Shown one piece after another: positions 1 through 31,784 of a stretch of DNA of 64,000 nt. The stretch comes from Polytrichum commune (lineage: Eukaryota > Streptophyta > Polytrichopsida > Polytrichales > Polytrichaceae), in NCBI GenBank assembly GCA_950295325.1, contig OX485806.1:33232001-33296000 (forward strand), read 5' to 3'. How positions within the stretch are numbered: the stretch's first letter is position 1; each line of letters starts with the position of its first letter. Under the pieces are notes generated by a model. It ran no database searches. It saw nothing but the letters and a program-made list of their open reading frames with translations, and was not told where the DNA came from. The translations under genes and the position numbers were made by a program.

Positions 1-223
1 ATTTAATCTTGAGATTAAAATAATAATTTAAACAATTTTTTTTTAAAAAACACAATGGCTCGAGATTGAGGCTATCCGGTTATTAACCACATGTATTGGT
101 TTCCTCGAATCTAGGAAACCCTAACAAGTGAATGCAATAACATCTACTTACATTGTGCACTCTCAGATAGCTCCACTAGAATTGAAAAAGAAAACACTAG
201 GTACATACATTGAAATTATATTA

Positions 224-290
224 CTCCCTTTGTCCCAAAATGATTGTCCTACCCCTCGGAGTTTATATCCCAAAATGATGGGGCCTATTA
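224..290 (+). mobile_element. Stowaway-like MITE end (fragment)
   Basis: A TA dinucleotide at 222-223 is followed by CTCCCTTTGTCCCAAAATGA, a close match to the terminal inverted repeat typical of Stowaway (Tc1/mariner-type) MITEs. A second, inverted-looking segment follows at about 270-290, but no clean 3' terminus is visible, so this is probably a truncated copy. A more complete relative lies at 51550-51836. Confidence 0.45.
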
Positions 291-428
291 CAATGTAAAA
301 CTAAGAAAAAATTTAGCCAAATGTTGATTCTTATTATAACAATCCAAAATGTATATGTGTGCAACCAAATATGTTTCCAAACATATTTTGTCATAAATTA
401 TATGGTGAATATTGCAATGGCATTAATA

Positions 429-3428: not shown

Positions 3429-3597
3429 TAGGTCCAGGTAGTTTTAGAGTTGTTGGTCTCTCAGAGTCTCAAATGCAAACTTCCATTATTCAGTTGACAA
3501 ATGAATCATGTGCATCTATGGTTTAATTGTATACCAAGTCTATCAATAATGAAGCTAGAGCCAAATGATGATACCGTTTTGGTGGTATCCATAAGAT

Positions 3598-3921
3598 GTG
3601 GAAGAGTGTAGGAGGGATGTGGATATGATTGTGGACAAAATTATGGAAGCGGATGGGGGGGATGAAATTAGGGCCACGGATGGAGATACAGAGGTCAAGG
3701 TAGGGGAGGAGGATGTCAATGCGGGGAAGAAGAAGCCCAAGGTTGGAAAGAGGGTGCTGAAGGTCACCGTACAGCGGAGGTGGATGGTGCAGTGTGAGGG
3801 CAAGGAATGGGACTTGCTCAACAAAGAGGCATCCACTGCAACGGCAAAGGCAAGAGACGACCAAGTAAGCTTGTTGGTACCCTTACTTAGATTGGCTTTG
3901 ACTTTGTACCTCGTTGTGTAG
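3598..3921 (+). CDS. Small ORF of unknown function
   Basis: A 107-codon ORF encodes an acidic N-terminal half (IVDKIMEADGGDEIRATD) followed by a Lys/Arg-rich stretch and a WMVQCEGKEWDLLNKEA segment. It is locally richer in G and C than its surroundings, which suggests a relic of coding sequence rather than chance. I recognise no family. The dead transposase ends just upstream at about 3430 on the other strand. It may be a fragment of a host exon or of a transposon. Confidence 0.2.
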   Translation: MEECRRDVDMIVDKIMEADGGDEIRATDGDTEVKVGEEDVNAGKKKPKVGKRVLKVTVQRRWMVQCEGKEWDLLNKEASTATAKARDDQVSLLVPLLRLALTLYLVV

Positions 3922-4169
3922 TAAGCCTCCTATGTCATACCTCGTAATGGGATTGTTGTACCCAAATCTTACCTTGTTGGATACATGGGGTAGCTATACC
4001 TCGAACCTTACTTGCTAGATACCTCAAACCTAACCTACTAGATACCCCAAATCTTCCATGTTCAATACCTCAAGATGCCTTACCTCAGACCTTTCCTTGG
4101 TGCATACCTTGGAATGTTATATATGTTCACCTTGTAGTAACCTACATAATCCTAATGTTGCTAAATTAC

Positions 4170-4845
4170 TCCGCCTTCATGGTGTGTGTTTGTTTTGGAG
4201 GGCTCTAGTGTGGTGGCCAACCTTTCAATCACCAAACAAGGAGAATATGTGAGCACAAGAGTGCACAAGCAAAATTTTGCAAGAATTCAAGTACAAAAAA
4301 ATGAACAAAAAACGAACAAAAAATGGAGCCAAATTTTGGAATTCTTGAGCATTTTTAGCCCTCTCGTGTACCCAATTTTTTATTGTGATATGGGTGAGGA
4401 GCTAGCCACAACCCCAAACCCCTCAAGCATCAACCTTAGTCGTTGTTGATGTGGCTTTGTGCATGGCTAGTTACATGCCAAGATGACCAGGACCAAGTTT
4501 ACAAGCTGCTGATGTGGCTTCAAGCCTAGCTTGGGAGTGCCAAGGTGGCCTAACCCCCCCCCCCCTCTTTCTTTGATTACTCAACCTTGATAGTGTGGAT
4601 GTGTATTGCAAGGTTCTAGGGTGGTGCCCAACCTCTCAACCACGTCACAAGCAAAAAATTGTAAGAACCATAGTGCACAAAAAAATGAGAAAAAACAAGC
4701 CTAAATGACAAATTTCAAACATTTGCTCGTTTTTATTTGATTTTTTGGGCATTTTCAACCATTTGGTGCACCCATTTTGTTAATTTTAGGTGGTTGAGGG
4801 GCTAGCCACCACCCCAGAACCCTCAAGCACCAATCTTAATGATTG
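4170..4845. repeat. Diverged tandem duplication, unit ~410 bp
   Basis: Two diverged copies of one segment follow each other at about 4170-4460 and 4590-4845. Both read a 'GG(C/T)TCTAG.GTGGTG.CCAACCT.TCAA.CAC' start, an A-rich 'GTACAAAAAAATGA..AAAA' middle, and an end with 'GAGG.GCTAGCCAC.ACCCC...CCTCAAGCA'. No coding capacity is evident. A run of ten or more C residues lies at about 4555-4565. Confidence 0.5.
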
Positions 4846-5062
4846 TTGTTGTGGCTTCATGCCCAACTGGAAGTTGCCAAGGTGGCTAAAGCCCAATCCC
4901 TTATCGCCACTAATGTGGTTACATGCCAAGACTTAGGGTTGCCAAGGTGGCGTAAGCCCAACCTTGGTGGCTACTGATGTGGCTTCATGCTTGGACTTAA
5001 GGTTGCCAAGGTGGCCAATGTCCAATCATTTGTCGTTGTTGTTGTGCTTCATGCTTGGACAT
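4846..5062. repeat. Tandem repeat, ~64-bp unit, about three copies
   Basis: The motif GTTGCCAAGGTGGC recurs at 4873, 4938 and 5002, a period of 64-65 bp. Each copy is followed by a TGTGG(C/T)T(T/A)CATGC segment. A further diverged copy (GTGCCAAGGTGGCCTAACC) sits near 4536. This is a local, non-coding minisatellite. Confidence 0.6.
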
Positions 5063-5903
5063 GTGGCTACAAGTAATCTAGAAGAAAAAACTAAACAAAT
5101 TAACCTTGGGGGAATATGGGCACTTTCCCAATATCCCAAATTTTTATTAAATTTGAATATTGTAGTATTTCATTATAGTTGAACATTTGGTTGTGTTCTT
5201 TTGACATGATGACATTGATACTTTCCCTCCAAGACCGTAATAAGGAGGATTGGATAATGCAAATGACATTGCTTCACACATGTAGACATTAAAGTACCCC
5301 CTACAAACTTATAGGGGGTGTTAGATCTGAGTTGGGGCAGCCCCCCATAGTTTTTTTACAATTTCTAAACCCGACCAGAAATTGTTGCCCGCCCCACCCA
5401 ACTTCGAAAAAAACTTTGCCCTTGCATTCTTGAAGGCCACTTGACTAAAAATCCCATATTGGGTGCAAATCACCTTCAAGGTCTAAAATCCAATATATAT
5501 GTGCACTTCCAATTAGTAAATAAGCAACTGATTGGAATTTCATTCCATAAGTGAAACCATCAATGAAACACGTAAATAATTTGGAGGTCACAAACATTAC
5601 AAAATCCTCATTAACATTGAGGTTATAATTTATGTGACTTACTATTTGAAATTGTCTTTGTCATTCTAAAATGAAACTTAAATTAGTGTGTTGACTTAGT
5701 ATGTATACTTTATAATATTTTAGGTGATGCCTTCTACCTTCACAAATATTCATACGCATTCAAACTAATTAAGTGTGATGAAATTGAAACTAATATGAAG
5801 GTGGAGAAATTGCAATTGATTACCACAACTCTAGTTGAAGGCAAATTCAAAGCATGATGGTTGTGTTGGTGGAATTCTTATCAAATGTTCTAAAAGTCTC
5901 TTC
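5063..5903. other. No gene recognised
   Basis: AT-rich sequence without a convincing ORF or repeat. It ends at the 5' LTR of the Ty3/gypsy-type element. The five bases before that LTR, TCTTC, match the five after the 3' LTR (TCTTG) at four positions. Confidence 0.5.
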
Positions 5904-6295
5904 TGTCACGTGAGGTGACATCGGGGGCTAAGTTACGTCAATTTAGGAGTAAATGGACTCCATTAGGAGTCCTAGTTAGTTGTTCATCCACTCCATGGAT
6001 GAACTCCACATAGGATTGGGGTTGTATGGAGAGGAAGGCCTCTTGACTTGCCATTGTTGTCAAGTCAAGTCTTGTGAGTGTGTTTTGAGAGAGAGAGAGC
6101 TTGTTGTTGCTTTCTCATGGCTTTGGTGTAGTAGATTATGAGTAAAGCCTTTGCATTCTTTCTCCACCACTTGCACTCTTGGATTCTCCCTTCGTGGAGT
6201 GAGAGATAGTTTGACTCTTGTGTGTGAATTTTAGAGTTTCTTAAGCTTTGTAAGGAGACATTTTAGTTTCTTAAGCTTGGAGAGAGAAACTCTTA
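5904..6295 (+). repeat. 5' LTR of the methyltransferase retroelement
   Basis: 392 bp, beginning TGTCACGTG and ending CTCTTA. By hand alignment it matches 15316-15745 with six substitutions, one 1-bp indel and one 39-bp length difference. It contains the palindrome GGACTCCATTAGGAGTCC, a TATA-like TTGTATGGA at about 6022-6030, and CATTGTTGTCAAGT at 6052-6065, the candidate transcript start and self-primer. The end is set by loss of similarity to the 3' copy and by the putative primer-binding site that follows. Confidence 0.8.
6022..6030 (+). promoter_or_regulatory. Possible TATA-like element in the LTR
   Basis: TTGTATGGA lies about 28 bases before the LTR-internal primer sequence at 6052. This is the spacing expected if transcription starts there. 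The match to a TATA box is weak. Confidence 0.3.
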
Positions 6296-6296
6296 T

Positions 6297-6310
6297 ACTT
6301 GACAACAATG
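6297..6310 (+). other. Putative self-priming primer-binding site
   Basis: ACTTGACAACAATG follows the LTR end by one base. It is the perfect 14-nt reverse complement of CATTGTTGTCAAGT at 6052-6065 inside the LTR. In Tf1/sushi-group elements the transcript's own 5' end folds back to prime minus-strand synthesis at a site directly behind the 5' LTR, and this arrangement fits. No tRNA-complementary site (such as TGGTATCA) is found at this position. Confidence 0.6.
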
Positions 6311-6621
6311 TTCAAATTTTTCATTTTTGGTTGTATTTCTGAGCTAGAATGGCCCAGTAATGAGAGCAAATGAGTGATACAAGTGTTTGAAAGCTTAGTT
6401 CGTCATTTCTTGCAATCCTCAAGAAGATTTTCAGAGAAATCTTCCCATTTTTCTTTTGTTGTCTCTTGTATTTTCTTCAATTGTTGATGTTTGAATCTTG
6501 AGATTCCATTTAGTTTCAAGATTCTCAAGTCACATTTTCTTGCTTGCAAATTGTGAAGCAAAGTTTAATTTAAATACAAACATAAACCACAATCAAAATC
6601 CGATTTAGTTTTAATTTTTGT

Positions 6622-6647
6622 TGAGCTCCGGACGGATCCGGAGCTCA
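6622..6647 (+). other. Strong hairpin in the retroelement leader
   Basis: TGAGCTCCGGA and TCCGGAGCTCA form an 11-bp perfect inverted repeat with a CGGA loop. GGAGCTCC(T/A) motifs recur just downstream (about 6658-6680), followed by a GC-rich stretch in an otherwise AT-rich leader. Position between primer site and gag would suit an RNA packaging or dimerisation signal, but that is speculation. Confidence 0.5.
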
Positions 6648-6732
6648 CCGGACCCTCTTGGAGCTCCTGGAGCTCCAATTCTGAACCCCGGGGGCGGGCG
6701 GGCGCCAGCCTGGCCCCCCCTTTCAAGGTAAG

Positions 6733-7028
6733 CCTTGAATTAATTAGGTTAGTTAATTAATTAGTTAATTAGGTTAGTTAGTTAGTTAATTAATTAGGCT
6801 AATTAAGTTAGTTAACTTAATTAGTTAATTAAGTTAGTTAACTTAATTAGTTAATTAAGTTAGTTAACTTAATTAGTTAATTAGGTTGGTTAATTAAATT
6901 AGTTAATTAAATTAGGTTAGCTTAATTAGGTTATGTTAGCTTAATTAGGTTATGTTCATTAGTTTAAGTTAATTAAGTTAGGTTGAGTTAAATTAAATTA
7001 ATTAAGTCAATTCATTTAAGTTAATTAT
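6733..7028 (+). repeat. TTAATTAG-type low-complexity array in the leader
   Basis: About 290 bp built almost only from TTAGTTAATTA, GGTTAGTTAA and AAGTTAGTTAACTTAA variants. It sits between the LTR and gag of the Ty3/gypsy-type element and contains no ORF. It grades into a T-rich tract at about 7028-7140. Confidence 0.8.
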
Positions 7029-7217
7029 GTTTATTTTTTTATTATGTTTATTTTGTTTATTTTTTTGTTTATGGTTTTGGTTTTTGTTTTTGTTTTGTTT
7101 TGTTTAATTAAAACAATTATTTTATTTTATTTTATTTTATTCACATTTTTACTTTCACCTTTCAAACTTGGCATCCAATTCTCACAAACTTTGAGGTTCA
7201 AATTTGGGGGCATACTA

Positions 7218-7490
7218 GCTCCGATTGGAGTGAAATTTGAGCCTATCTTGTGTGAAATTTGCCAAGGAATCCAATGGTGTAATTGGATTGTTGATTGGAA
7301 TTCAAAATCATTGCTGAAATTATTAATTTTAACGCTGATTTTTGTTTTTGGGAGCAAATTAACTCTGATTGGAGTGAAATTTGAGCCTAATTTGTGTGAA
7401 ATCTTCCTAGGAGTCCATTGGTGCACTTAGTTTGATGATTGGAGTCCATAATCACCTTGGAAATGAGCATTTCCAACGCTGATTTTTAAT
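7218..7490 (+). repeat. 144-bp tandem duplication in the leader
   Basis: GATTGGAGTGAAATTTGAGC occurs at 7223 and again at 7367. Each copy ends in a segment with AACGCTGATTTTT. This doubles a piece of untranslated leader directly upstream of gag. Confidence 0.6.
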
Positions 7491-7642
7491 TTTAATTACC
7501 AATCTCAAACCTTTGCACAATTTTGGAATTCTGGAGGCATATACATTTGGCATTTGGCAAGGGATTGCCATTTAGATAGCCCGCAACAGGTGCAGGTTGC
7601 CATTACCTTGTAGATAGTTGCAGGTACTCAAGTGATTATTTT

Positions 7643-8329
7643 ATGGTGCAAACTAAGAGCCGATATTATCGATCTCCATCACCAGATTACTTGGAGGACG
7701 TGCATACCACAAATCTTGAGCCAGAGGTAGATACCAACGAGGCTTTTGAGCCTATTTCGGCGTTGGACACTACTAGTAGGCTTCGGATTTGGAGTGTCGG
7801 CATGTTCGACGAAATGGAGGACGATCGCCACAATTCAGTGCGTGATCGGTTTTCAGGTCGAGTTGGGGGCATTTCCTTGCCCGATTGGAAACTCCGGTTT
7901 CGTACCTGGATTAAGGAGAAACGCCAAAGGTCTTCCAATTTCAATGATTGGTATGCCTTTGAACTTCTGCCTCAGCATTTGGAGTATGAGGCACTCCAAA
8001 CTTATGAACGCTGGACAGAGGGTCATCAGCGACAACTTCGGGAGGTGGAGCAGTATTGGGAGGCTCGGGTTGAGCTCATTTCAGCCCTTAAGGATGGGGC
8101 GGTTGCTACCTTAGCTCCACCCACCTTAAAGGAGGAGGAATCGCCGGCGGAGTCTAAGGACACGGAACTGGCACTTGGGCCAATGGTGGCTAGTAGTAGC
8201 ACGGCAACCCTTTCACGGGTGGCACGTGCTACACAGGCAGCATTGACGGCTGTTGGTCCACCACCTCCGTTTAATACCCTTACTGAATTTGTCGCACATT
8301 TGGAAGTGGAGTATGGTGGGTTTCGGTGA
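7643..8329 (+). pseudogene. gag: Gag, N-terminal part (retroelement)
   Basis: A 228-codon ORF opens the polyprotein. The ATG at 7643 is the first one after the long leader. It includes a helical, charged region (SLPDWKLRFRTWIKEKRQRS, then QTYERWTEGHQRQLREVEQY) typical of plant Ty3/gypsy Gag, then an Ala/Pro-rich linker. It ends at a TGA (8327-8329). The same frame continues directly with a MQRIQDFRREKDDIPRTMY segment, so the stop interrupts one original Gag. Gag would form the virus-like particle in the cytoplasm. Confidence 0.75.
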
Positions 8330-8335
8330 GACCAG

Positions 8336-9877
8336 ATGCAGCGCATCCAGGATTTCCGCCGAGAGAAGGATGATATTCCACGGACCATGTATACGCGACT
8401 CGCGAGATTTGCTGTGGAGTCGGGAGGTGTTTTTGCTGAGAGTCAGCTTGTTAAAATCTTTTTGTCTAAGATTGACAAGCGGCTACTTGAGTTGGCATCA
8501 CCTCGGATTATCCTCGACTACGAGGGCCGAGCTACGCTTGCACAAGCGTTTGCCGTGGTTGCGAGATGTGATCGGGCTCTTTGCCAACATGATGCCACAG
8601 ATATGGTATCTTGGATGACAGAGAGTCCGAAACCAAGAAGAATTGTCACAGCTACTAGTAGTTTAGCTGAGACTCAACCCGTCAAGGAGCAAAAGATTTT
8701 GCATTGTTGGGGTTGTGGAGAAGCTGGTCATTCGAAGAATGATCCCAATTGTCCTAAGAAGAAGAAAACTCAGCCTTTGGGAAAATTAAAACAAAAGATG
8801 GAACCAGTAAAGGCAGGGGATAATTCTAAGAAGAGACAATTGAAATGTAACCATTGTGGTGGCACTAATCACGATGTGGATCATTGTTTCCAACTTCATC
8901 ATGAGATGCGGCCTGCCAGTTATGTCACTGGAAAGTCTCCAAGGGAGCATAGTCTTGAGGCTAAGGTGGCAGAGCTTGAGCAAAAGCTCAAATCTTCTGC
9001 ATCTTTTGCTCAAATTTCTGAGCCGCATGTGGGTGGTGGCACCTCGGGTTCGGACATGTATATGTTTGGAGCAGATGGAGAGGTGGTGGCGGCGGCTTCT
9101 ACTCGCTCACAAACATTGGCAGATGCGGTGGCTTCCACGAGTGGTGGTAGCAACGAGGTGCTACATCCTCGCCATGCTGGACCAGCTGATCAAATTGGTC
9201 AAGCACGTTTACCTCTTTCATTTGGATTGGTAGACATCACTGTTGTTGGGGCTAAAAACCCTGTACCTTTGAGAGATGGGGATTCCATCTCGAAGGATGT
9301 TACGCAGGCATTGGCATATAAAATTCTCCATATGCCAATTTTCTCGGGTTCGGAGTTTATGGCTTCGGATTTCAAGCCTGCTGCAGTTTTTCATTTAGCT
9401 GGGAGAATGTTAGAAGGTAAGGTGGATTTACCATCCCTTCAAGTATCCCAAGCTGTGGTTGACGTACCTGTGGCTGAGGAGGTGGAGGACTTAGCCAATT
9501 TGCGAGCGAGTCTTGCGGATGCGGCGATCATTGCTTTTGGTAAGCAAACTGATATTCCTCCAGCATCAATTTCAGCAGTGGATACGTCATTTTCGAATTA
9601 TGCGTCGGGAGCGGCATATTTTGCAGACATTTCTGCAAGGCCTGCTCGCGAACGGCATAATTTACAACCTGGAGTTGTACGGCTGATGAACGACAAATCT
9701 TTGTTTGTCGTTTCACGCACGGATATGCCCACTATCCGTGCTACACCACTGAGAGTTATGATGGATTCCGGTGCTCAACCGGTTATGATTGGCAAAGGAC
9801 TTGCTGACAGTCTTGGATTGACGCCAACAAGCTTGGATCCTTGTCCATTCACTTGTTACTTCAGTAGGGGGCACTGA
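8336..9877 (+). pseudogene. Gag C-terminus with two zinc knuckles, then protease N-part
   Basis: 513 codons in the same frame as the upstream Gag piece. After the capsid-like region come two CCHC zinc knuckles: CWGCGEAGHSKNDPNC from about residue 124 (an unusual six residues before the last Cys) and CNHCGGTNHDVDHC from about residue 171. A coiled-coil-like segment (EAKVAELEQKLKSS) follows. The aspartic protease active site DSGAQPVMIG is at about residue 477. The frame is lost near 9860 by an indel, and the protease continues in the next frame. The zinc knuckles would bind the element RNA, and the protease would cut the polyprotein. Confidence 0.8.
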
Positions 9878-9911
9878 ACGTGCAACAGGTTACACCAAGG
9901 CACCTCTACGT

Positions 9912-10631
9912 TTGATTTTTCATGTGGGGGCAGGGCCTACTTACACTCATTTGTCAATGAAGTGTGTTGTTACTAATGCTACCAATTATGATATATTTGT
10001 TGGTCAGCAAGCTCTTTACCCATTTGGCTTTGGTTTGGATAATTGGACGGAAGAGGCATGGATTAGACCGGGATGGTCCACTGGAGATGGCAGGAAGGTA
10101 TTTATTCCCGTCACATTTGCAGCCACTGCTATGACTATGGTTGCGGAGGCAATGTTTGGTTGCAATGGTTCAGTTGCAGATTTGGCTTGTGCTCCAGTTT
10201 TATTGGAGGAAACAATGGACTATACTTGTAATGCGGCAGAACAACAATTTTTACCATCTTTTCAAATTCCTGCTCGACATTTCAAGGATCCACCTCCACC
10301 ATGGCGAACTCCTAAGGAGTTATCCGACCATTGTCAACACATTGTAGCGGATTTGGAGCTTGGAGAGGCACCCCCAACTTCATCCTCATTTTCTTTTGCT
10401 CAACCCATTCGTTGGCAACCATCACCTGAAGGTATTGTCCTTGTGGAGATCTTTGGAGGCATTGGCACAGGTTTGGCGGCAGTGTTGGAAGCTGGAATTA
10501 CAGTTTGGCGATATATTCATGTGGACAATGGGTATGCAACCAACAGAGCCGTCCGACACCACATCCAACAATTATTGTTGAGATACCCCGCACAATTGTC
10601 AGCCTCTGCCATTCATGGATGTTGTGGTTAA
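9912..10631 (+). pseudogene. Protease C-part and methyltransferase N-part
   Basis: The frame actually opens upstream of 9912 (readable back to about 9865, SVGGTERATGYTKAP), because a frameshift joins it to the preceding ORF. The first part completes the retropepsin (NYDIFVGQQALYPFGF resembles the hydrophobic-Gly motif of Ty3 proteases). From about residue 170 a C5 DNA methyltransferase begins: VLVEIFGGIGTGLAAVLEAG is motif I (AdoMet binding; F181 is the usual Phe), and YIHVDNGYATNRAVRHH is the motif II region with Asp in place of the usual Glu. The ORF ends at a TAA (10629-10631), and the same frame goes on without a shift. Confidence 0.8.
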
Positions 10632-10649
10632 CTTCCTCAAGATGTCACT

Positions 10650-11447
10650 ATGATTAGTGATGAGGATTTGAGAAGGTTGGGCCACGTGGATTTGATTATT
10701 GCAGGATGGCCTTGTGAAGGCCATTCGCGGGCAGAAACTGGCCAGGGATTGGATGATCCTAGGTCTAGTTTGTTTGCGGATTTGATGCGATTGACGCAAT
10801 GGTGGTTTACCCACCAATCAACTCCGCCAGGGTACATTTTCGAAAATGTACCATTATTGGGTGATACCCGGCACAAATTGGTGAAGGATGGTGAGTACAT
10901 TAACCAAATTCTGGGTATTCCAACATTTCTGGATGCTGCATCTTTGGGATCCTTTGTTTATCGGCCTCGTTGGTTTTGGACCAACTTGGTATCACCTCGG
11001 GTGCTTTCAGCGGCGATTGCCCGCATTCCTCGCCTTATGGATCGCAAGGTGGATGACATTTTAGATGATCATCGTGTTTCCTTGGCAGTTACCAAGGATG
11101 ACACCTTGTCATTTGCATTAATTAACAAGGTGGGCATTCCGAGAGGTGCACTACTTACTTTTGTGACATATCCACAGTCTTTTGCATTTCGATCTCGTGG
11201 ACCTGGCATGGTTTGGGATTAAAAATCCCAAACTTATGAGGAGCCTACGGCAGATGAGCGGGAACGTGCCATGGGTTTTCTAATATGTACCACGGCTGCT
11301 CACGGGCTTCAGGAAGGTCAGAGACGTTTCCTATTGGGGCAAGCTATGGATCTTAATAGCATTGTGTAGATAATTGGAATTTGTCTTGCTGCCCAACAAC
11401 GTATGGATGACCAATTGCTTACTCTGAGGGCAGAGAACAATGGTTAG
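10650..11447 (+). pseudogene. C5 DNA cytosine methyltransferase, catalytic part (Dnmt3-like)
   Basis: Continues the frame of the preceding piece. The catalytic motif IV is DLIIAGWPCEGHSRA (nucleophile Cys at residue 22 of this ORF, nt 10713). GYIFENVPLLGD is motif VI (ENV). YRPRWFWTNL is motif VIII and resembles the Dnmt3/DRM motif RARYFWGNL. After a TAA at 11220 the frame still reads TADERERAMGF and FLLGQAMDLNSIV, matching the C-terminal motifs IX-X, then meets TAGs at 11367 and 11445. Motif order I-IV-VI-VIII-X is Dnmt3-like, not the rotated order of plant DRM enzymes. The protein would transfer methyl groups to cytosine C5. PCE replaces the more common PCN/PCQ. It lies between protease and RT in the same polyprotein frame. 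Confidence 0.8.
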
Positions 11448-11453
11448 GGGGCA

Positions 11454-11738
11454 ATGAAGCCGCAATCCAAGGATCACATTGAGGTCAATGACACCGAGGA
11501 ATTATTTCCTTTGAAACTTCATGTTGCGGAAGAGCTTCGAGCCCAACGTGTTTGTTCGGCTTTGGCCCAAGAGTTTGGGAAGTTGGAGGCCCATAAAATG
11601 TTTTCACTTTTATTTCTTGGTGATACTTCATATTTGGGTAGCTATTTAGCTACACAAACTGATTGTAGTGGAGAGGATACGCATTTGGATTCAAGTGCAG
11701 ATGATGGGGGCAAAGGTGTTGCCCTCTCCACGGACTAG
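11454..11738 (+). pseudogene. Linker between methyltransferase and RT
   Basis: 94 codons in the same frame as the methyltransferase and the RT, bounded by TAGs at 11445 and 11736. It has an acidic, Ser-rich end (EDTHLDSSADDGGKG) and no recognisable domain. It includes LHVAEELRAQRVCSALAQEF, likely helical. It is probably a spacer or processing region of the polyprotein. Confidence 0.55.
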
Positions 11739-11750
11739 CAATCACAGGTT

Positions 11751-12530
11751 GTGCTGGCACCAAGTGGCAATCCTTCTATGAAGAAGGAAACCACGGAGTT
11801 TGACGATTGGCCAATTGAAGTGGGGCCAAAGCTTACTGGTGCCGAAGCACGAAAGGTACGGGCATTTATTCGCTCTTACCGTAATTGTTTTGCCTTTAGT
11901 CTTCATGATCTTGAAGGATATAAAGGTAAACCTGTTCGTATTCAACTCGAGGACGACCACCCTATTTTCAGACGGCCGTACAGACTTAGTACATCTGAAA
12001 GGTTGGGTGTTCAAACTCGATGTCAAGAGTTATTGGCAGCGGAATTGATTGAACTCTCCAATGGAGAGTATGCTTGTGTCACGGTTATGCCGTCAAAGAA
12101 GGATATCTTTGGCAACTGGACGGAAAAACGGATATGTGGTGATTATCGTCCAGTCAACCGCAAGACCAAGTCGGATCGATATCCAATGCCGATATCGGAG
12201 GAATTGTTTGATGCACTGGGATTTTCTAGAATCTTCAGCACTCTGGATTTGAGGCCTGGTTATCACCAATTACCTTTGTTGTTGGGTGATCGGGTGAAGA
12301 CCGCATTTTGGGGAATTGATAAAGATGGCAAGGATCAACTTTATCATTGGAAATTTCTGCCATTTGGTCTCAAGAATGCACCAGTTGAATTTCAGCAGGT
12401 GATGGATCAATTATTGGTTGGTTTGCCGTTTGCTAGATGTTACATTGATGATGTTATCATCTTTAGTAATAGTCCACAGGATCATGTGAGACATTTGCAA
12501 GCAGTATTTGAACGACTTCAACGGTGGTGA
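11751..12530 (+). pseudogene. Reverse transcriptase, palm/fingers
   Basis: Ty3/gypsy RT motifs in order: FRRPYRLSTSERLGVQ, KRICGDYRPVNRKT, RIFSTLDLRPGYHQL, LPFGLKNAPVEFQQVMD and the catalytic YIDDVIIFS (YIDD at residues 231-234). The ORF ends at a TGA (12528). About 20 bp further an extra A in a run of five A shifts the frame, after which the RT connection domain reads on in the next ORF. It copies element RNA into DNA in the virus-like particle. Confidence 0.9.
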
Positions 12531-13416
12531 CTCCGTTTACATCATGGAAAAATGTAAGTTTTTCCAGGATCAATTGCCCTATTTAGGCCACATGATTGTT
12601 CCTGGCGGTCTTGGTGTGCAACAGGCAAAGGTGGATGCTTTGCACAAAATTCCCGCACCTAGTGATGTACCACGGCTTCATGCATTTCTAGGATTGGCAA
12701 ATTATTATAGGAGGTTTGTCAAAAACTTTAGTTTGATTGCCAAACCTCTTAACATTCTCACGGGGAAAGACCAACCATGGATTTGGAGTCGGGAACAACA
12801 ACAGGTATTTGATACATTGAAGCAGAGGCTCGGTTCAGCGCCAGTGCTTCGACGCCCGGATGTGTCTAAAGCTTTTCAATTGCACACGGATTGGAGTGCA
12901 GTGGGATTGGGAGCGGTATTGACACAGAAAGATGAAGAGGAAAAAGAATATGTGGTGGCTTATGCATCTAAAAGCAATAATAGTGCTGAATCTAATTATT
13001 ATTCTTATGAAGGCGAGGCCTTGGCGGCCGTTTGGGCCATTGCACATTTTCGACCTTATTTGCATGGGCAAAAGTTTACTTTGGTGATTGATCATCAGTC
13101 TTTAAAATGGCTTATGAAATCAGATAAGCTCACCGGGAAACTTGCTAGGTGGACATTGTTACTTCAGGAATATGATTTTGAAGTTGTTCATCGAGCAGGA
13201 ATTGCCAACTTGGATGCAGACGGATTGTCTCGCAATCCAAGTCCTTCAGATGAGGATTTAACTGGAACCATATGGCATGGAGATTGTGATCGTGAGGCAA
13301 TGCTGGGTTGGCATGCTGCCACATATCTCACAATGATGTCGGGATTGGCTGCTGAGATCCTTGTAGAAGAACAAGATGAGGAGGTTGATAAATCTCTCGT
13401 TCTTAGTGATGTGTAG
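12508..13416 (+). pseudogene. RT thumb/connection and RNase H
   Basis: True similarity begins at about KCKFFQDQLPYLGHMIVPGG (near 12550), behind the frameshift. The first codons of this ORF overlap the RT frame and are not meaningful. The region HAFLGLANYYRRFVKNFSLI is the RT connection typical of Ty3/gypsy. RNase H follows with the acidic set LHTDWSAVG, GEALAAVWA and LVIDHQSL, and ends with HRAGIANLDADGLSR. The frame meets a TAG at 13414 and continues into the integrase. RNase H removes the RNA strand of the hybrid. Confidence 0.9.
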
Positions 13417-13431
13417 GAAGACCAGACGGTC

Positions 13432-14697
13432 TTGTACAAACTTCAACAAGGGATATTTCTTCTTGGACTATCTGCTATGGAGCGAGATAGAATTAGTCAC
13501 CGGATAACAAGGTTTCGTTGGGCAAACAGCTTGTTATTTCGTGTATGGCCGAACGGAACGAGGCGCATCGTTCCAAGGCCAGATAAAAGAGTTTCTTTGG
13601 TACGGCAAGTGCACGAGGAGCTTGGACATTTTGGAGTGCGAAGGACGCACTCTATGTTGCGCAACCAATATTGGTGGACTGGTATGTATCAACAGGTTGC
13701 CGCTTATGTTTCTCGGTGTGAAGTATGTGACCGGGTCATGTCAAGTTTTAATACTTTATCACCTCAACTTCAGCCTTTACCTATTATGGGCTTGGGATAT
13801 CGTTGGTCTTTGGATTTTGCCGGACCGCTTACTATCACTCTACGTGGTTCCAAGTATGTGCTTGTGATGGTGGAGCATTTTAATAAGTGGATTGAACTCG
13901 TGGTTCTTCCCCAAAATTCCTCAGAATTGGCGGCTATGGCATTTCTTGATCGAGTTTTGGCACGGTTTGGAGCACCTGCAGAGGTGTTGACGGACCAAGG
14001 GAGAGAATTCCTTGGATCTTTCGAGGCTTTGTGTACCAAGGCTTTGATTGATCATCGGACAACTTCTAGAGATCATCCTGAGGCAGATGGCTTAGCTGAA
14101 CGAGTTGTTCAGACGGTTAAGCGCGGTTTGCGGAAGTATAGATTGCTTCATGGCAACCATCGCGATTGGGACTTGATGTTACCATGGATAGCAATGGGTT
14201 ATCGTTTCAGCATGCAAGCATCTTTGGCATCCTATAGTCCTTACCAACTCTTGTATGGACGGGAACCAATTTTACCTAGCTCGGTGCGAGAGAAATTGGC
14301 TCCCGTGGTAAACTTGGATGATCCAGATGTATGGACTCAATGTCTTCATGACCGAGCAACGTTCTTCCAAAAGGCCATGCCTATGGCTATGGAGAACTTA
14401 AATATTGCTCAACATCGTGATACATTACGGTGTGCCCGGATCCGCAGTGGAGCTTATCGACCTCAGGTTCGTAGATTTTCCAATGGGGATTATGTTTACT
14501 TGCAACGGGAGGCGCCTACGACATTGGATGTCAAGGCTGGGCGCACGATTTTGCGGGTAAAAGATGTCTTGCCAAATGGTATATTATTGCTTGAAGGCAA
14601 GGATGGACGGGAATGTCGTGAGCATTCAAAGAATTGTGCTCCATATCACCTTCCCATCGACGGCTCTGTGCCTCCCGAGTTGGCGGTTGTACCATAG
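13432..14697 (+). CDS. Integrase (Ty3/gypsy)
   Basis: 421 codons in frame with the RNase H piece. The zinc-binding domain HEELGHFGVRRTH...CEVC is followed by the rve core with DDE residues in WSLDFAGPL, VLTDQGREF and GLAERVVQTVKRGL. The C-terminal part reads YVYLQREAPTTLDVKAGR, and ends CREHSKNCAPYHLP. There is no chromodomain. The ORF ends with TAG at 14695, and a PHD finger is in frame directly behind it. It inserts the cDNA into the host chromosome. The ATG at 13432 is only the first after the upstream TAG; the protein would be released by proteolysis. Confidence 0.9.
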   Translation: MYKLQQGIFLLGLSAMERDRISHRITRFRWANSLLFRVWPNGTRRIVPRPDKRVSLVRQVHEELGHFGVRRTHSMLRNQYWWTGMYQQVAAYVSRCEVCDRVMSSFNTLSPQLQPLPIMGLGYRWSLDFAGPLTITLRGSKYVLVMVEHFNKWIELVVLPQNSSELAAMAFLDRVLARFGAPAEVLTDQGREFLGSFEALCTKALIDHRTTSRDHPEADGLAERVVQTVKRGLRKYRLLHGNHRDWDLMLPWIAMGYRFSMQASLASYSPYQLLYGREPILPSSVREKLAPVVNLDDPDVWTQCLHDRATFFQKAMPMAMENLNIAQHRDTLRCARIRSGAYRPQVRRFSNGDYVYLQREAPTTLDVKAGRTILRVKDVLPNGILLLEGKDGRECREHSKNCAPYHLPIDGSVPPELAVVP

Positions 14698-14883
14698 GGT
14701 CTGCCTTGTTATGTTTGTGGAGAGAAGAAAGGATCTGCAACAATGTTATTGTGCGACCAATGTCAACGTGGATGGCACATGGCATGTTTGACACCTCCCA
14801 TTTTTACTCTTCCTTTTGGCAATTGGGTTTGTCCTCGTTGTCGGAAAGCCTCTCATTCCGTGGCCGTTAATGGTCATGATTGA
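14698..14883 (+). CDS. PHD finger at the polyprotein C-terminus
   Basis: 61 codons without a start, in frame with the integrase and separated from it by a single TAG. The residues form a C4HC3 PHD finger: CYVC, then CDQC after 11 residues, H after QRGW, MAC, and finally CPRC. WHMACLTPP and NWVCPRC are very typical of histone-tail-reading PHD fingers. It ends at TGA 14881-14883. It occupies the place where chromoviruses carry a chromodomain and could target integration or the methyltransferase to certain chromatin. That role is an inference. The stop may be a mutation of this copy or a readthrough site. Confidence 0.75.
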   Translation, partial: GLPCYVCGEKKGSATMLLCDQCQRGWHMACLTPPIFTLPFGNWVCPRCRKASHSVAVNGHD

Positions 14884-15208
14884 GAATTTTGTGGATGTTA
14901 CCACATGTTTTAGTGGTGAAGTTGTTATTTAGTTGGTTGGAAATTTTATGGAATTAAGACCACATTGAAAGAGTTATCCAAGAATTCAACATTAATTGTC
15001 GAAGGCGATTAAGGATGGGGCTCACATTGCACCCAGCCTACAGTTCTTGGATTACTTTGTCAATCACGAGTTTAATTCCTTCGATTACTACTACCCAATT
15101 AAATATGTATAGATGTAGCAACAACTTCATCATGTTCAACAACTCTACCGATGAGTGTGTTTGTTCCTAGCCGATTGGAGGGGCTCCTTATCTACTAGTG
15201 GGGGCACT
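14884..15208 (+). other. 3' untranslated region of the element with a polypurine-like tract
   Basis: No ORF. AGTGGGGGCAC at 15197-15207 resembles the polypurine tract that primes plus-strand synthesis. However, it directly precedes the TGAAGAGGTGG sequence at 15209 and not the 3' LTR copy at 15316. Confidence 0.45.
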
Positions 15209-15313
15209 TGAAGAGGTGGTTGTTTAGCATTTTAGTTTGCTATTTTATTTTGCTAATTGATGTTGACAACGACACTCGATCTGTTGTGTTTAACGATCTT
15301 AGTTTACACGACA
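15207..15313 (+). repeat. 107-bp direct repeat, copy 1 (partial LTR?)
   Basis: CTTGAAGAGGTGGTTG to TTTACACGACA. It is repeated at 15747-15853 with a few differences (for example TTGTTTAGC/TTGCTTAGC and ATCTGTTGTG/ATATGTTGCG). The two copies bracket the 430-bp LTR. This copy follows a polypurine-like tract, as the beginning of a 3' LTR would. Confidence 0.75.
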
Positions 15314-15315
15314 AC

Positions 15316-15745
15316 TGTCACGTGGGGTGATATCGGGGCTAAGTTACGTCAATTTAGGAGTAAATGGACTCCATTAGGAGTCCATGTGTGTTGGGATGAG
15401 TAACGGACTCCATTAGGAGTCCTAGTTAGTTGTTCATCCACTCCATGGATGAACTCCACATAGGATTGGGGTTGTATGGAGAGGAAGGCCTCTTGACTTG
15501 CCATTGTTGTCAAGTCAAGTATTGTGAGTGTGTTTTGAGAGAGAGAGAGCTTGTTGTTGTTTTCTCATGGCTTTGGTGTAGTAGATTATGAGTAAAGCCT
15601 TTGCATTCTTTCTCCACCACTTGCACTCTTGGATTCTCCCTTCGTGGAGTGAGAGATAGTTTGACTCTTGTGTGTGAATTTTAGAGTTTCTTAAGCTTTG
15701 TAAGGAGACATTTTAGTTTCTTAAGCTTTGAGAGAGAAACTCTCA
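15316..15745 (+). repeat. 3' LTR of the methyltransferase retroelement
   Basis: 430 bp from TGTCACGTG to CTCTCA, the partner of 5904-6295. It is longer by a 39-bp segment that contains a second GGACTCCATTAGGAGTCC palindrome. The self-primer sequence is present here too, at 15502-15515. No polypurine tract directly precedes it. Confidence 0.8.
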
Positions 15746-15748
15746 TCT

Positions 15749-16036
15749 TGAAGAGGTGGTTGCTTAGCATTTTAGTTTGCTATTTTATTTTGCTAATTGA
15801 TGTTGACAACGACACTCGATATGTTGCGTTTAACGATCTTAGTTTACACGACACTTCGTTTTTTAGTTGGTGACGTGAAAGAAAGTGTGTTAGATTATTG
15901 GCTCCAAAGACCTCTTTATGGGCTCAAGTATTGTCAATTTCTTCATAATAATTGAAATATGTACGTTGTATTTGCTAAATATATTTTACACAATCTATTT
16001 TTTTCACTCTTAGCCTCACAATTGGAACAAACAACA
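15749..16036 (+). mobile_element. Candidate second LTR with a Met-tRNA-type primer site behind it
   Basis: The segment starts TGAAGAGGTGG and ends ACAACA. It is followed by ATT and TGGTATCA (16040-16047), the first eight bases of the primer-binding site complementary to initiator tRNA-Met. The following sequence looks like a retroelement leader with a short ATGAGCAGTAGAAAG start at about 16104, but soon loses coding sense. This suggests the 5' end of another, truncated LTR element abutting the Ty3/gypsy-type element. Its first 105 bp equal 15209-15313. Confidence 0.45.
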
Positions 16037-16047
16037 ATTTGGTATCA

Positions 16048-17331
16048 TGATAGTAATAAGGTCAAGGTAGTGGGGTAATGTAGACTAGAAGGTGTAGCTA
16101 ACATGAGCAGTAGAAAGAATTTCAATAGAGCTACGGACTTTCTCAATTACATTATTGCATAAACCCAAATTATAAAAGTAAATGTATCATGGACACGTGG
16201 ACAAGAAAAGACGAAAGTCTTTGCAATTCTCAATAGAGGAGTTGACTAAACTAGGATCAATTATTGATGCTTCTGCATCTACATGTGATTGTTTATAAAT
16301 GTAAATTTCAATCATTGAATATTATCTCTATGTTTGTGTGGATTGCTCATGCATATATTCATGCTTGTTGGTGTAGTAACGATACTTCATCACATTCGAG
16401 AGAAGCTCCGCCATATTTAATGTCATCTTGGCACTGTCGCACAATACTCTATCCTCGCCTCATAGTGGTGGCAAAGATGATCTCCCTCAGTGATGATGAG
16501 GTCCTTATTCGGAAAGTTTTCATGAAATTCCAAAAGAGTATGTAAGTTTGCCATTTTTTCATATTTGTTTGATTTTGGAGTCATTCATCGTGTTATCTCC
16601 AATAAGGAATCTTGACCATTTCAGATTTTTAAAACGAAAATGTGATGTCGCCTCCCACTTACATAATTATCCCATTACATGAAAAGACGGTCACAAATGG
16701 TTGTTGATCTAACCTCAACACCATCACACTATAGTAGGGTGTCGGTTGTGATCGTTGCATCATGCCATTTGTAAATTTCGAGGTGAAAGAGGGTATTGAA
16801 CATGTTTGTGACAAACATGAGGAGGAGGGATTGGAAGACAATAAGGGTAGTAATGGAGCTTCTATGCATGGTTCCACGTTGACTACATTGATTGTGCTCA
16901 TTACTTTGTGGACATTGATATGAGCGAGTAATTTCCTAGTATCCAAAAACTCCATTTTCCAAAATTCCCATAATGCCTCCATTGATTTATTTCTCAAACC
17001 TTCATGAATTCTAGAAATACAGTCTAGAGCATGCTCGATACTTGGAATGTGCTTGCATTTTTTTTCTTCCAAGAAATTGAATGTTGAATCTAACGACAAT
17101 GTTAAAAATCATCTCCAAACTCTCAACTTGTGGTTGTTGATTTTAATAGTATAGTAAAGCATTTATTAGGTTGATTGCATTTTGTGTGAACATTCTACTC
17201 GTACTATTTTAAACAAATATGTTACTATTTATGTCACAATACCATGGTTATAGGATATCTAGTGGGTGTATCTCCAAATACTTTGCCAAACTCACTGTCC
17301 ATCTCTCCCCGTCCTCAAACCATATCCACTA
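16048..17331. other. Possible retroelement remnant; one minus-strand ORF
   Basis: A 146-codon minus-strand ORF at 17099-16659 (MSLDSTFNFLEEKKCKHIPS...) is the only longer frame. I do not recognise it, and it may be part of a decayed transposon. Otherwise the stretch is AT-rich and without signals. Confidence 0.25.
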
Positions 17332-17731
17332 CACTAAATAGGTAGATTAGTGTTGGAAACACTAATAGTCGACGAAAACACTAAATCTCAATTGTCTTCA
17401 TAGTGTTAGAACACTAAATGTCAACTCTAACACTATTTGTACCAATTAGTAACTTTGAATATTTACAAAAGCGCATTTAGTGTTAGATGACATTTTTTGT
17501 AGATCTTCAAATGAAGAATTGGAGGTAGAATATGTGAGCCTCATAGAAAATGTAATATGTTAGGAATTTGATATTACAAAATTTAAACTTAATGGAACTC
17601 AACTTTGACAATGCAAAATAAAGACAAAGGAAATTGTAACACTAATTGTACTTTCAAGTGACCTTTAATGTTTTGGGTAACTATTGGCTCTAACACTAAT
17701 CTTCATCTAACACTAATCTACCTATTTAGTG
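17332..17731. mobile_element. 400-bp MITE with perfect terminal inverted repeats
   Basis: The ends CACTAAATAGGTAGATTAG... and ...CTAATCTACCTATTTAGTG are perfect inverse complements over 23 bp (26 bp if flanking CTA/TAG is counted). TA lies on both sides (17330-17331 and 17732-17733), as expected for a TA target duplication. There is no ORF. The interior repeats the motif AACACTA many times. This is a non-autonomous DNA transposon, probably Tc1/mariner-like by its TA duplication. Confidence 0.8.
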
Positions 17732-17906
17732 TAGCTAGGGTGACCAACTACTAACTATTATTAATGATTATTGGCTATTGATGTAGTGTCTACTCCCTGC
17801 AAAGGTTCACGTAATTTTACATCTAATGTCATTGTCCTTTAGGACATGGCTATGGATGTTCCACAAACATATACTATTTTCACTACAACTACCTCTAGAG
17901 ACCAAA

Positions 17907-17957
17907 GTTCTTCTTATTCTTCTTCTTCTTCTTCTTCATCATCATCATCATCATCAA
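17907..17957 (+). repeat. (TTC)n(ATC)n microsatellite
   Basis: A run of TTC/TCT triplets passes directly into ATC triplets. A short ORF here is Ser/His-rich only because of the repeat. Confidence 0.9.
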
Positions 17958-18059
17958 TATATTTGGGAAACAACCAATATATGTACACCAATAGCTCAGG
18001 AAGATGGGTAGGAGCCGGTTGGTTGATACAATTTTCCTGCCTATAAATGACTAGCAGGA

Positions 18060-18173
18060 CCAAGTCATGTATAACACACTAAACGATCAGACGGACTCAA
18101 TGGGAATCGAACCCGGACCGTCTAAGTGTAGTACAAACATCCTCCCTCAACCAACCGAGGAAACATGACTTGG
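18060..18173 (-). mobile_element. tRNA-derived SINE-like or pseudo-tRNA sequence
   Basis: On the minus strand GGTTCGATTC (18113-18104) matches the Pol III B box. GGTTGGTTGAGGGAGG lies about 40-55 bases before it and can serve as a degenerate A box. The whole is bracketed by an 11-bp perfect inverted repeat, CCAAGTCATGT at 18060 and ACATGACTTGG at 18163. It does not fold into a normal tRNA, so a SINE head or a tRNA relic is likelier than a functional tRNA. Confidence 0.45.
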
Positions 18174-18174
18174 C

Positions 18175-20920: not shown

Positions 20921-20923
20921 GAA

Positions 20924-20973
20924 TTTTTTTAAAAAAAAAAAAAAAAAACTAACTAACTAACTAACTAACTAAC
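20924..20973 (+). repeat. T7A18 tract followed by (CTAA)n
   Basis: A homopolymer switch from T to A is followed by about six CTAA units. A degenerate TATG/GT-rich stretch lies just before it (about 20835-20880). Confidence 0.85.
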
Positions 20974-22400: not shown

Positions 22401-22553
22401 GGGGAGAGGGGGGGGGGGGGGGAGGTTGGCCATGTGGTAGTGGTGTAGGGGATTTGGTGGGGGGTTGATGGGGGTTTGGTTTTGGTCAAAATTTACGTTT
22501 GTTGAAGATTAAGTATGTTAGGCATTCTATGGCGTTCATGTGTATGGAATTCA

Positions 22554-22907
22554 TTAGATTCTTGAATGTGGGGGTATGGAGATATTAAGGTTTTTTAGTT
22601 TTGTTATGGATTGTTGGTGTATGGCTCCGCATACTCTTGCCATGATTGTTATAACAGGGTTGGCGTTCCACCCTTGTTGTTTGATTGTGTTTATTAGTGC
22701 GTCGTAGATTTGATGTTTGGTTTCAATGGCCATGTTGGGAAACATGTCGTGGCAATATGTGATATTTACCAGTTGTATTTTATTGCGGGGTTTGGATTTA
22801 GTGGGGGGGTGTTGTTTTTTGGGGCGCCTATTATGCATGGGATGTCCGGTCTTAATTTTGCCATGCATTGGCATGGAATGTTGTAGCATGTGCATGGTAG
22901 GATCCAA
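22554..22907 (-). pseudogene. Possible LINE ORF fragment, copy 1
   Basis: A 117-codon minus-strand ORF contains QIYDALINTIKQQGWNANPV followed by ITIMARVCGAIHQQSITKLK. The pattern '...L...GW...(I)..ARG.IH..S...L..L.I' recalls the segment behind the RT in some LINE ORFs. A related piece is at 62150-61890 (-). The strand is C/A-rich here. The LINE assignment is tentative; the similarity between the two fragments is clear. Confidence 0.35.
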
Positions 22908-24205: not shown

Positions 24206-24210
24206 TATTG

Positions 24211-28770: not shown

Positions 28771-28789
28771 TTATGCCTATAATTAAAAG

Positions 28790-31080: not shown

Positions 31081-31084
31081 AAAA

Positions 31085-31757: not shown

Positions 31758-31784
31758 GCTGCAGATAATTGGGCACTCCCTTTC

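What the first reader, a model, noticed from the sequence alone, without database searches (positions are those of the whole stretch)
10420..11447. A C5 DNA methyltransferase is built into a Ty3/gypsy polyprotein, between protease and RT
Seen: motifs I (FGGIGTG), IV (GWPCEGHS), VI (FENVP), VIII (RPRWFW) and X (LLGQAMDLN) occur in order in a frame that continues upstream into the protease and downstream into the RT. Known: retrotransposons with captured cytosine methyltransferases have been described in the alga Klebsormidium and the dinoflagellate Symbiodinium. Inference: the element may methylate its own copies, or host DNA near them, so as to pass as silent chromatin or to limit damage. This would be such a capture in what appears to be a land plant.
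Basis: partly seen in the sequence, partly recalled or inferred. Interest (0 to 1): 0.95.

Follow-up and report, generated by a model that had tools for sequence, protein, structure and literature searches.

The report
Jumping gene carrying a DNA methylase
In what is probably a moss-like land plant, a young, many-copy jumping gene carries its own DNA-methylating enzyme, encoded together with its coat protein, which lets one ask why a genomic parasite would carry the very tool that hosts use to silence it.

Summary
Confirmed and extended. Window 5904-15853 is a Ty3/gypsy-type retrotransposon between 4-bp target duplications (CTTC), with a Dnmt3-type C5-methyltransferase (MTase, 10419-11366). 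This copy is broken, but its genome (407.8 Mb, seven large contigs) gave 150 scored MTase matches in two subfamilies, some with full open frames; 3 of 8 dated copies have identical end repeats. The MTase is a kept part: 94 of 98 integrase matches have it just upstream; the catalytic Cys is kept in 94 of 101 relatives; pN/pS is 0.24 against a distant relative, and 0.32-0.41 within the genome against about 1 for its linkers. Correction: the frame does not run into RT. ORF1 (Gag-protease-MTase) ends at UAG-CARYYA, the tobacco-mosaic-virus type leaky stop, seen in 40 of 41 same-genome loci (one unreadable) and in a distant relative; ORF2 is RT-RNaseH-integrase-PHD. Repeats run A-coding-B-A-B, as reported for KnitGypsy-Dnmt3 of Klebsormidium, the closest known element. 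New here: probable land-plant host, spread through bryophytes, MTase at Gag dosage before a leaky stop, a terminal PHD finger, and end repeats nearly free of CAG/CTG sites. What the MTase does (marking the element's own DNA) is inferred, not shown.

The parts
5900..5903 (.). target-site duplication, left copy (CTTC)
   Evidence: perfect 4-bp duplications in 9 of 10 copies with both ends seen
5904..6300 (+). end repeat R1, left copy, begins TGTCACG (right boundary approximate)
7578..11735 (+). ORF1, Gag-protease-MTase, broken in this copy (stops at 8327, 10629, 11220, 11367, 11445; frame change near 9822-9877)
   Evidence: start taken from the 1386-aa open frames of other copies
8705..8890 (+). 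two Gag zinc-knuckle-like motifs (CWGC..., CNHC...)
   Evidence: read by eye; positions of their starts
9764..9775 (+). aspartic protease active-site motif DSGA
   Evidence: (PF13650 8.3e-4, below cut-off)
10419..11366 (+). Dnmt3-type C5-cytosine methyltransferase domain, motifs I-X in linear order
11736..11744 (+). UAG CAATCA, leaky-stop (UAG-CARYYA) context between ORF1 and ORF2
11739..12530 (+). reverse transcriptase (IDD at 12444)
   Evidence: PF00078 1.4e-20
12490..13416 (+). RNase H region
   Evidence: PF17917 1e-36
13417..14694 (+). DDE integrase (H2C2 zinc finger and core)
   Evidence: PF17921 5.7e-18, PF00665 1.1e-12
14698..14880 (+). C-terminal PHD finger of ORF2 (an in-frame stop at 14695 precedes it in this copy)
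   Evidence: PF00628 1.3e-11
15197..15207 (+). polypurine-tract-like AGTGGGGGCAC directly before R2
15208..15313 (+). repeat R2, internal copy, ends ACACGACA
15314..15315 (.). 2-nt spacer of the R2-R1 junction GACA-AC-TGTC (GC in the other copies seen)
15316..15747 (+). end repeat R1, right copy
15748..15853 (+). repeat R2, terminal copy, ends GACA
15854..15857 (.). target-site duplication, right copy (CTTC)

Best explanation
An autonomous Ty3/gypsy-type retrotransposon family with a captured, maintained Dnmt3-type methyltransferase. ORF1 is Gag-protease-MTase; ribosomes mostly stop at UAG-CARYYA, so the MTase is made at Gag dosage and would be packed into the particle; a few per cent read through and add RT-RNaseH-integrase-PHD. 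I think the MTase methylates the element's double-stranded DNA (in the particle or just after integration), so that a new copy starts life marked like resident chromatin, and that the PHD finger steers the integrase to nucleosomes with an unmodified H3 tail, i.e. inactive chromatin. Integration is at the GACA-nn-TGTC junction inside the repeat unit, which gives the A-coding-B-A-B repeats. Shown by sequence: anatomy, leaky-stop context, selection on the MTase, copy number, recency, end structure and target duplications. Inferred: read-through rate, packing, methylation of its own DNA, PHD target.
For: MTase: PF00145 6.2e-10; nearest solved enzymes DNMT3A/B/C (1.4e-8 with one relative, 2e-7 with a profile), ahead of M.HhaI (1.2e-5; 5.1e-4) and DRM (1.4e-3; about 0.03-0.1), with no DNMT1 or CMT listed up to E=1. 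Kept catalytic residues among relatives: Cys 94 of 101, ENV Glu 106 of 124, motif VIII second Arg 108 of 129. Selection: pN/pS MTase 0.24 (0.20-0.30), RT+RNaseH 0.15, integrase 0.095, PHD 0.19, Gag 0.40, linker 0.39 between window and L001; within the genome MTase 0.41, its core 0.32, upstream linker 1.04, post-MTase 0.93 (21 stop-free of 30 copies). Intact relative L001: 1162-aa ORF1 part, UAG CAATCA, then a 1047-aa ORF2 in the same frame. Stop context: CAATCA in 29 of 30 loci, one not alignable; 12 of 12 further loci, one a repeat of an earlier one, fit CARYYA, six of them as CAATTA or CAGTTA; hence 40 of 41 distinct loci. CARYYA is the TMV-type read-through context (PMC4132726, passages). 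PHD: 55 of 57 related integrase proteins that reach that position carry PF00628. Fixed domain: 94 of 98. Target duplications perfect in 9 of 10. Retrotransposon Dnmt3 enzymes of SymbioDIRS methylate CG de novo in yeast (PMC5890265, text read).
Against: No methylation data here. The KnitGypsy-Dnmt3 enzyme itself gave no activity in yeast, called inconclusive by its authors (PMC5890265). The coding body is less CG-depleted (o/e 0.70) than the surroundings (0.30-0.51), and differences between paired repeats show no CG or CHG excess (4 CG, 1 CHG, 30 CHH, 1 undefined; p 0.53 and 0.39), so there is no mutational footprint of self-methylation beyond the host's. MTase is less constrained than RT and integrase. 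The predicted MTase model is weak (pLDDT 62). Synonymous sites between window and L001 are near saturation.
Confidence: 0.5

Rival explanations
1. The MTase acts on host DNA or host regulation (at insertion sites, or by disturbing host silencing), not on the element's own DNA.
For: It is made at Gag dosage, more than cDNA marking would need (inferred from the stop context); the PHD finger on the integrase could bring particle proteins to chromatin.
Against: The MTase lies on the Gag-protease side of the leaky stop, not on the integrase-PHD side, so most MTase is not physically joined to the chromatin reader.
Confidence: 0.17
2. Self-restraint: the element methylates its own resident copies so that transposition stays low and the host survives.
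For: Raised as one option in PMC5890265 (discussion).
Against: 3 of 8 dated copies have identical repeats and 15 of 150 MTase matches lie in full 1386-aa open frames: the family is expanding recently; the repeats lack CWG sites rather than being rich in targets.
Confidence: 0.13
3. The domain is kept for another task (RNA methylation, nucleic-acid chaperone in the particle, or shielding cDNA from host nucleases or deaminases).
For: Gag-linked position; motif I second glycine varies (G 25, S 15 of 50); PMC5890265 discusses RNA methylation and protection of cDNA.
Against: Cys, Glu and Arg of the C5 mechanism are kept in most relatives, against a purely structural task.
Confidence: 0.15
4. A decayed passenger or an assembly accident in one copy, of no importance to the family.
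For: The window copy itself has several stops and frame changes.
Against: 94 of 98 copies with the domain, open frames in many, selection on it within and between genomes.
Confidence: 0.02

Closest known systems
KnitGypsy-Dnmt3 of Klebsormidium nitens (PMC5890265; parts 1-4 of 7 and passages read)
   Same: Gypsy domains, Dnmt3-type MTase in the element's coding region with purifying selection, DIRS-like repeat order with Gypsy domains; K. nitens integrase-PHD proteins match the window integrase at 51-55% identity
   Different: There the MTase is described in the Pol polyprotein ORF; here it sits with Gag and protease before a UAG-CARYYA stop. No leaky stop, PHD finger, target duplication or CWG loss is mentioned in the parts I read. 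Host here is a probable land plant with a far larger copy number. MTase sequences could not be compared directly.
SymbioDIRS-Dnmt3 and SymbioLINE-Dnmt of Symbiodinium (PMC5890265)
   Same: retrotransposon-borne C5-MTase; DIRS type with A-coding-B-A-B repeats
   Different: tyrosine recombinase or LINE machinery, other hosts, separate captures
Chromoviruses (Ty3/gypsy with a C-terminal chromodomain on integrase; recalled)
   Same: chromatin-reading domain at the integrase C-terminus
   Different: PHD finger in place of the chromodomain, plus MTase, leaky stop and split repeats
Plant DNMT3 genes (PMC6453930, passages)
   Same: Dnmt3-type domain with linear motif order
   Different: host genes have the MTase at the N-terminus with a C-terminal DUF3444 and no retroelement domains

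Membership tests
Ty3/gypsy LTR retrotransposon | order protease - RT - RNase H - integrase | tested here: met
Ty3/gypsy LTR retrotransposon | two plain direct LTRs at the ends | tested here: not met
   R1-coding-R2-nn-R1-R2 split repeats instead, in the window and in all 7 family copies with both ends seen, and 2 of 2 in the second subfamily; a retrotransposon of Gypsy descent, not a plain LTR element
Ty3/gypsy LTR retrotransposon | DDE integrase with short target-site duplication | tested here: met
   PF00665; perfect 4-bp duplications in 9 of 10
KnitGypsy-Dnmt3 kind | Gypsy domains with a Dnmt3-type MTase | tested here: met
KnitGypsy-Dnmt3 kind | DIRS-like repeat order A-coding-B-A-B | tested here: met
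KnitGypsy-Dnmt3 kind | MTase in the Pol ORF together with RT | tested here: not met
   a conserved UAG separates MTase and RT
KnitGypsy-Dnmt3 kind | MTase closest to the K. nitens element MTase | not testable with these tools
   no K. nitens MTase among the 120 listed of 497 relatives; longer proteins are outside the search's length limits
DIRS elements | tyrosine recombinase | tested here: not met
   Pfam shows DDE integrase and no phage integrase domain in the pieces scanned
Dnmt3 methyltransferases | closest to DNMT3 among solved C5-MTases; linear motif order (not permuted as in DRM) | tested here: met
Dnmt3 methyltransferases | groups with host Dnmt3 genes in a tree with Dnmt1, CMT, DRM | tested here: inconclusive
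   only mouse DNMT3C and one bacterial enzyme, both on long branches, could be put in the tree
Dnmt3 methyltransferases | de novo methylation activity | not testable with these tools
   needs expression

The most novel reading that the evidence does not exclude
A land-plant retrotransposon lineage that swaps one silencing mark for another: it makes a Dnmt3-type de novo methylase at Gag dosage to mark its own DNA, while its promoter-bearing repeats have lost nearly every CWG site, the substrate of the host's chromomethylase loop; a PHD finger places it in inactive chromatin, and a DDE integrase inserts it through a circle-like GACA-nn-TGTC junction inside the repeat. Capture would be old, before the split of bryophytes, since Sphagnum, Marchantia, Calypogeia and Closterium proteins carry the same MTase family.
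Probability: 0.2. Interest if true: 0.92.

Novelty: new variant of a known kind. Interest (0 to 1): 0.76.

Why it matters
Retrotransposons with captured cytosine methylases were known from an alga and a dinoflagellate, and a 2019 article states that they are absent from land plants such as tracheophytes (PMC6338049, passages). Here is a high-copy, recently active family in a probable land-plant genome of good assembly, with relatives in genomes of Sphagnum, Marchantia and Calypogeia. Its copies span identical to 3% diverged repeats, so whether a parasite marks its own DNA, and whether that helps or restrains it, can be measured by long-read methylation calls on young and old copies.

Tried and rejected
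Tried without result: viral-contig scans with six protein queries and one DNA pattern (no relative); Rfam and tRNA scans of the window (none); structure of the MTase (pLDDT 62, not used as evidence); naming the host (a plant-like PP4R3 gene and seven large contigs are all there is; the test with a land-plant family did not complete). Rejected on the way: 'left LTR truncated' and 'LTR starts after the polypurine tract', given up when both ends, target duplications and other copies showed the split-repeat order; 'MTase and RT in one frame'; 'CG depletion of the element'. My own PHD pattern was faulty (0 of 120) and was replaced by the Pfam column (ids typed by hand). In one search minus-strand loci were not turned; redid it. 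In one search the strand of the MTase match was not checked, only its side. P0147 was labelled Klebsormidium in the tree although its listed name is cut off before the organism.

Full report
THE THING ITSELF. Pfam finds, on the + strand of the window, an aspartic protease (8.3e-4, below cut-off), a C5-cytosine DNA methylase (PF00145, 6.2e-10), RT (1.4e-20), RNase H (1e-36), integrase (5.7e-18 and 1.1e-12) and a PHD finger (1.3e-11), in that order from 8330 to 14880. The methylase motifs I, IV, VI, VIII and X lie at 10452, 10704, 10839, 10962 and 11331 in one frame. This copy is broken: stops at 8327, 10629, 11220, 11367, 11445, 13414 and 14695 and frame changes near 9822-9877 and 12490-12530.

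ENDS. The element is 5904-15853. It starts TGTCACG and ends ACACGACA, between two copies of CTTC. Its repeats are not plain LTRs but R1-coding-R2-AC-R1-R2. I fetched the two ends of 10 other copies. Both ends were in the fetched stretches in 7; in 3 one end was not. All 7 have the same repeat order, and 6 of 7 have a perfect 4-bp target duplication (the seventh 3 of 4). Of 3 copies of a second subfamily, 2 could be read at both ends and both have perfect duplications (read by eye from the printed flanks). With the window this is 9 of 10. A purine tract (AGTGGGGGCAC; AGGGGGGGCA in the second subfamily and similar in L001) stands directly before the internal R2. The internal R2-R1 junction reads GACA-nn-TGTC, with GC as spacer in all 9 family right ends seen, AC in the window: it is the two element ends brought together with 2 nt between. 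I infer that integration uses this junction of a circular or two-repeat DNA, so that what would be the LTR (R2-nn-R1) is split.

AGE AND NUMBERS. The window lies at C4:33232001-33296000 of a genome of 407.8 Mb in 64 contigs; seven contigs hold 406.1 Mb. The MTase piece has 150 scored matches of 500 candidates, a lower bound: 133 at 85-100% identity and 17 at 63-65%. 15 of the 150 lie in a full 1386-aa open frame without stops in the match; 19 of 98 integrase matches lie in a full 1047-aa frame. PF00145 gives 123 matches over the cut-off. Repeat pairs are identical in 3 of 8 dated copies (7 plus the window); the others are 0.993, 0.991, 0.981, 0.980 (window) and 0.969.

IS THE DOMAIN FIXED? Of 98 integrase matches (90-100% identity, the best of 2591 candidates), 87 have an MTase match 1.0-7.5 kb upstream. 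I fetched upstream DNA of the other 11: 7 have the MTase with small breaks, 4 do not within the stretch. Those 4 have an MTase match on the same strand 9.8, 13.1, 13.5 and 39.9 kb upstream, which looks like later insertions splitting the copy; one of them is also the locus (L018) in which the stop context could not be aligned. So 94 of 98, and no clear copy without it. The selection of the best-matching integrases biases this towards the same family; more distant integrase elements were not examined.

SELECTION. Between the window and L001, a relative in which synonymous sites are near saturation (pS about 0.7-0.8), pN/pS is 0.24 (0.20-0.30) for the MTase, 0.15 for RT plus RNase H, 0.095 for integrase, 0.19 for PHD, 0.40 for Gag and 0.39 for the protease-MTase linker. 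Among 21 stop-free of 30 copies in the genome, the MTase gives 0.41, its core 0.32, a short upstream linker 1.04 and the stretch after the MTase 0.93. Among 154 listed database relatives, where the position is covered, the catalytic Cys is kept in 94 of 101, the ENV Glu in 106 of 124, motif VIII second Arg in 108 of 129 and motif X Gly in 63 of 63; the second motif I Gly varies (G 25, S 15 of 50). The window has Glu where 91 of 100 have Gln next to the catalytic Cys.

THE LEAKY STOP. L001 is a 9285-bp contig in a bin called Synechococcales from a soil-crust sample name; its ends repeat 127 bp, as when a many-copy element is assembled into a circle. I take it as a misbinned eukaryotic element. 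It has a 1162-aa frame (open at the contig end; protease and PF00145 6.8e-12), a UAG, and in the same frame a 1047-aa frame with RT, RNase H, integrase and PHD (4.3e-10). Window and L001 both read UAG CAATCA. In the genome, 29 of 30 loci read UAG CAATCA, one being unalignable. Of 12 further loci (one a repeat of an earlier one) all 12 have a UAG-CARYYA at that place: six CAATCA, four CAATTA, two CAGTTA. So 40 of 41 distinct loci, and the changes stay within the consensus. At least 13 of 154 database relatives end at this place. CARYYA after a stop promotes read-through of the TMV stop and of others in plant viruses (PMC4132726, passages). Hence the MTase belongs to Gag-protease-MTase, and RT-integrase-PHD is the read-through product (inferred; not measured).

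WHICH METHYLASE. The best solved match of one relative is DNMT3A (1.4e-8), then 3B, M.HhaI (1.2e-5), M.HaeIII, one other bacterial type (5.5e-5) and a DRM (1.4e-3). A profile gives DNMT3C/3A/3B first (2e-7), M.HhaI 5.1e-4, DRM 0.03-0.1, with a weak second match at motif X. No DNMT1 or CMT is listed up to E=1 in either. The motif order is linear, unlike DRM. In a tree of 108 of 154 relatives, window, L001, DNMT3C and one bacterial enzyme, window and L001 share a 15-row group (99/96), and the rows named Sphagnum troendelagicum, Marchantia polymorpha, M. paleacea and Calypogeia fissa lie in its 63-row sister group (98/93); Closterium is outside; the bootstrap had not settled and DNMT3C and the bacterial enzyme sit on long branches. 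The surroundings of these named proteins were not seen, so that they too lie in retroelements is inferred from family membership. One relative is filed under a bacterial MAG (P0171), probably misbinned.

THE INTEGRASE AND ITS PHD. Of 337 integrase relatives at E<=1e-20, 120 were listed; 66 carry PF00628, and of the 57 that reach the position 55 do. Named hosts are Klebsormidium nitens (51-55% identity), Calypogeia fissa, Riccia sorocarpa and Tetrabaena socialis. A quick tree puts window next to L001, with Klebsormidium outside in two places. So the PHD finger is old in this lineage; the MTase may be a later addition. The window PHD matches CHD4, PHF12, PHF21A, DPF, KDM5 and UHRF1 fingers best; from recall, several of these read the unmodified H3 tail.

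METHYLATION TRACES. CG observed/expected is 0.70 in the element's internal part, 0.62 in the MTase, against 0.30-0.51 around it: no loss beyond the host's. But R1 is CG-poor (0.24-0.28) and holds no CHG site where about 17 are expected, in both window copies. For CAG/CTG, 13 of 14 R1 repeats of 7 other copies hold none and one holds one (14 to 25 expected), including copies with identical repeats; second-subfamily R1 hold 1, 1, 0, 0 against 14-15. Simulated sequences never reached 0 (0 of 5000), while 3 of 67 overlapping 400-bp intergenic windows did. Intergenic DNA here is CHG-poor in general (o/e 0.30-0.53), the PP4R3 gene is not (1.02), and the reverse-order control is 0.83-1.03 except 0.70 in one short stretch; L001's repeats are at 0.26. 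The copies share descent, so this is one or two lines, not 20 events. Either long passage through CHG-methylated states or selection to lose chromomethylase sites would do it. Differences between paired repeats (36 transitions, 11 transversions) show no CG or CHG excess.

HOST. The window holds an intron-rich PP4R3 gene at about 35165-46173 whose wording looks plant-like to me (recall). With bryophyte relatives and seven large chromosomes a moss is likely; n=7 recalls Polytrichaceae, a guess. No call names the host.

WHAT IS KNOWN. PMC5890265 (parts 1-4 of 7 and passages) describes KnitGypsy-Dnmt3 with the same repeat order and Gypsy domains, MTase in the Pol ORF, Ka/Ks below 0.2, and no activity in yeast (inconclusive). 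PMC6338049 (passages) states that such transposons are not in land plants such as tracheophytes. PMC12344493 (passages) repeats streptophytes and dinoflagellates. Seven full-text searches on the subject listed no report from a land plant; the library lacks most subscription papers. I file this as a new variant of the KnitGypsy-Dnmt3 kind: it works like it and shares its build, but its MTase is in the Gag-protease frame, and direct descent could not be tested.

Noticed in passing
window 5904-6300, 15316-15747; R1 of other copies (L033-L052, L078-L081): End repeats R1 hold almost no CAG/CTG sites (0 in 15 of 16 family repeats, 0-1 in 4 second-subfamily repeats, about 14-25 expected), even in copies with identical repeats.
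   Followed up: partly
window 15290-15340: The internal repeat junction GACA-nn-TGTC equals the two element ends joined with 2 nt; it suggests that a DDE integrase inserts a circle-like DNA, giving DIRS-like repeats without a tyrosine recombinase.
   Followed up: partly
window 1-5900 and 15860-34000: Intergenic DNA is strongly depleted in CHG (o/e 0.30-0.42) while the PP4R3 gene is not (1.02) although the gene is CG-poor (0.34).
   Followed up: no
L001 (CADCWO010000201.1) and protein P0171: Eukaryotic retroelement DNA binned into bacterial MAGs (Synechococcales; Ca. Obscuribacterales), whose MTase could be mistaken for a bacterial restriction enzyme.
   Followed up: partly
window 35165-46173: Intron-rich PP4R3 (SMEK) gene on the + strand.
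   Followed up: partly
window 23233-24201 and 54852-55812; 48137-48473 and 63387-63722; 6740-6930: Other dispersed repeats (80-86% alike) and a TTAATTAG-type simple array in the element's 5' noncoding part.
   Followed up: no
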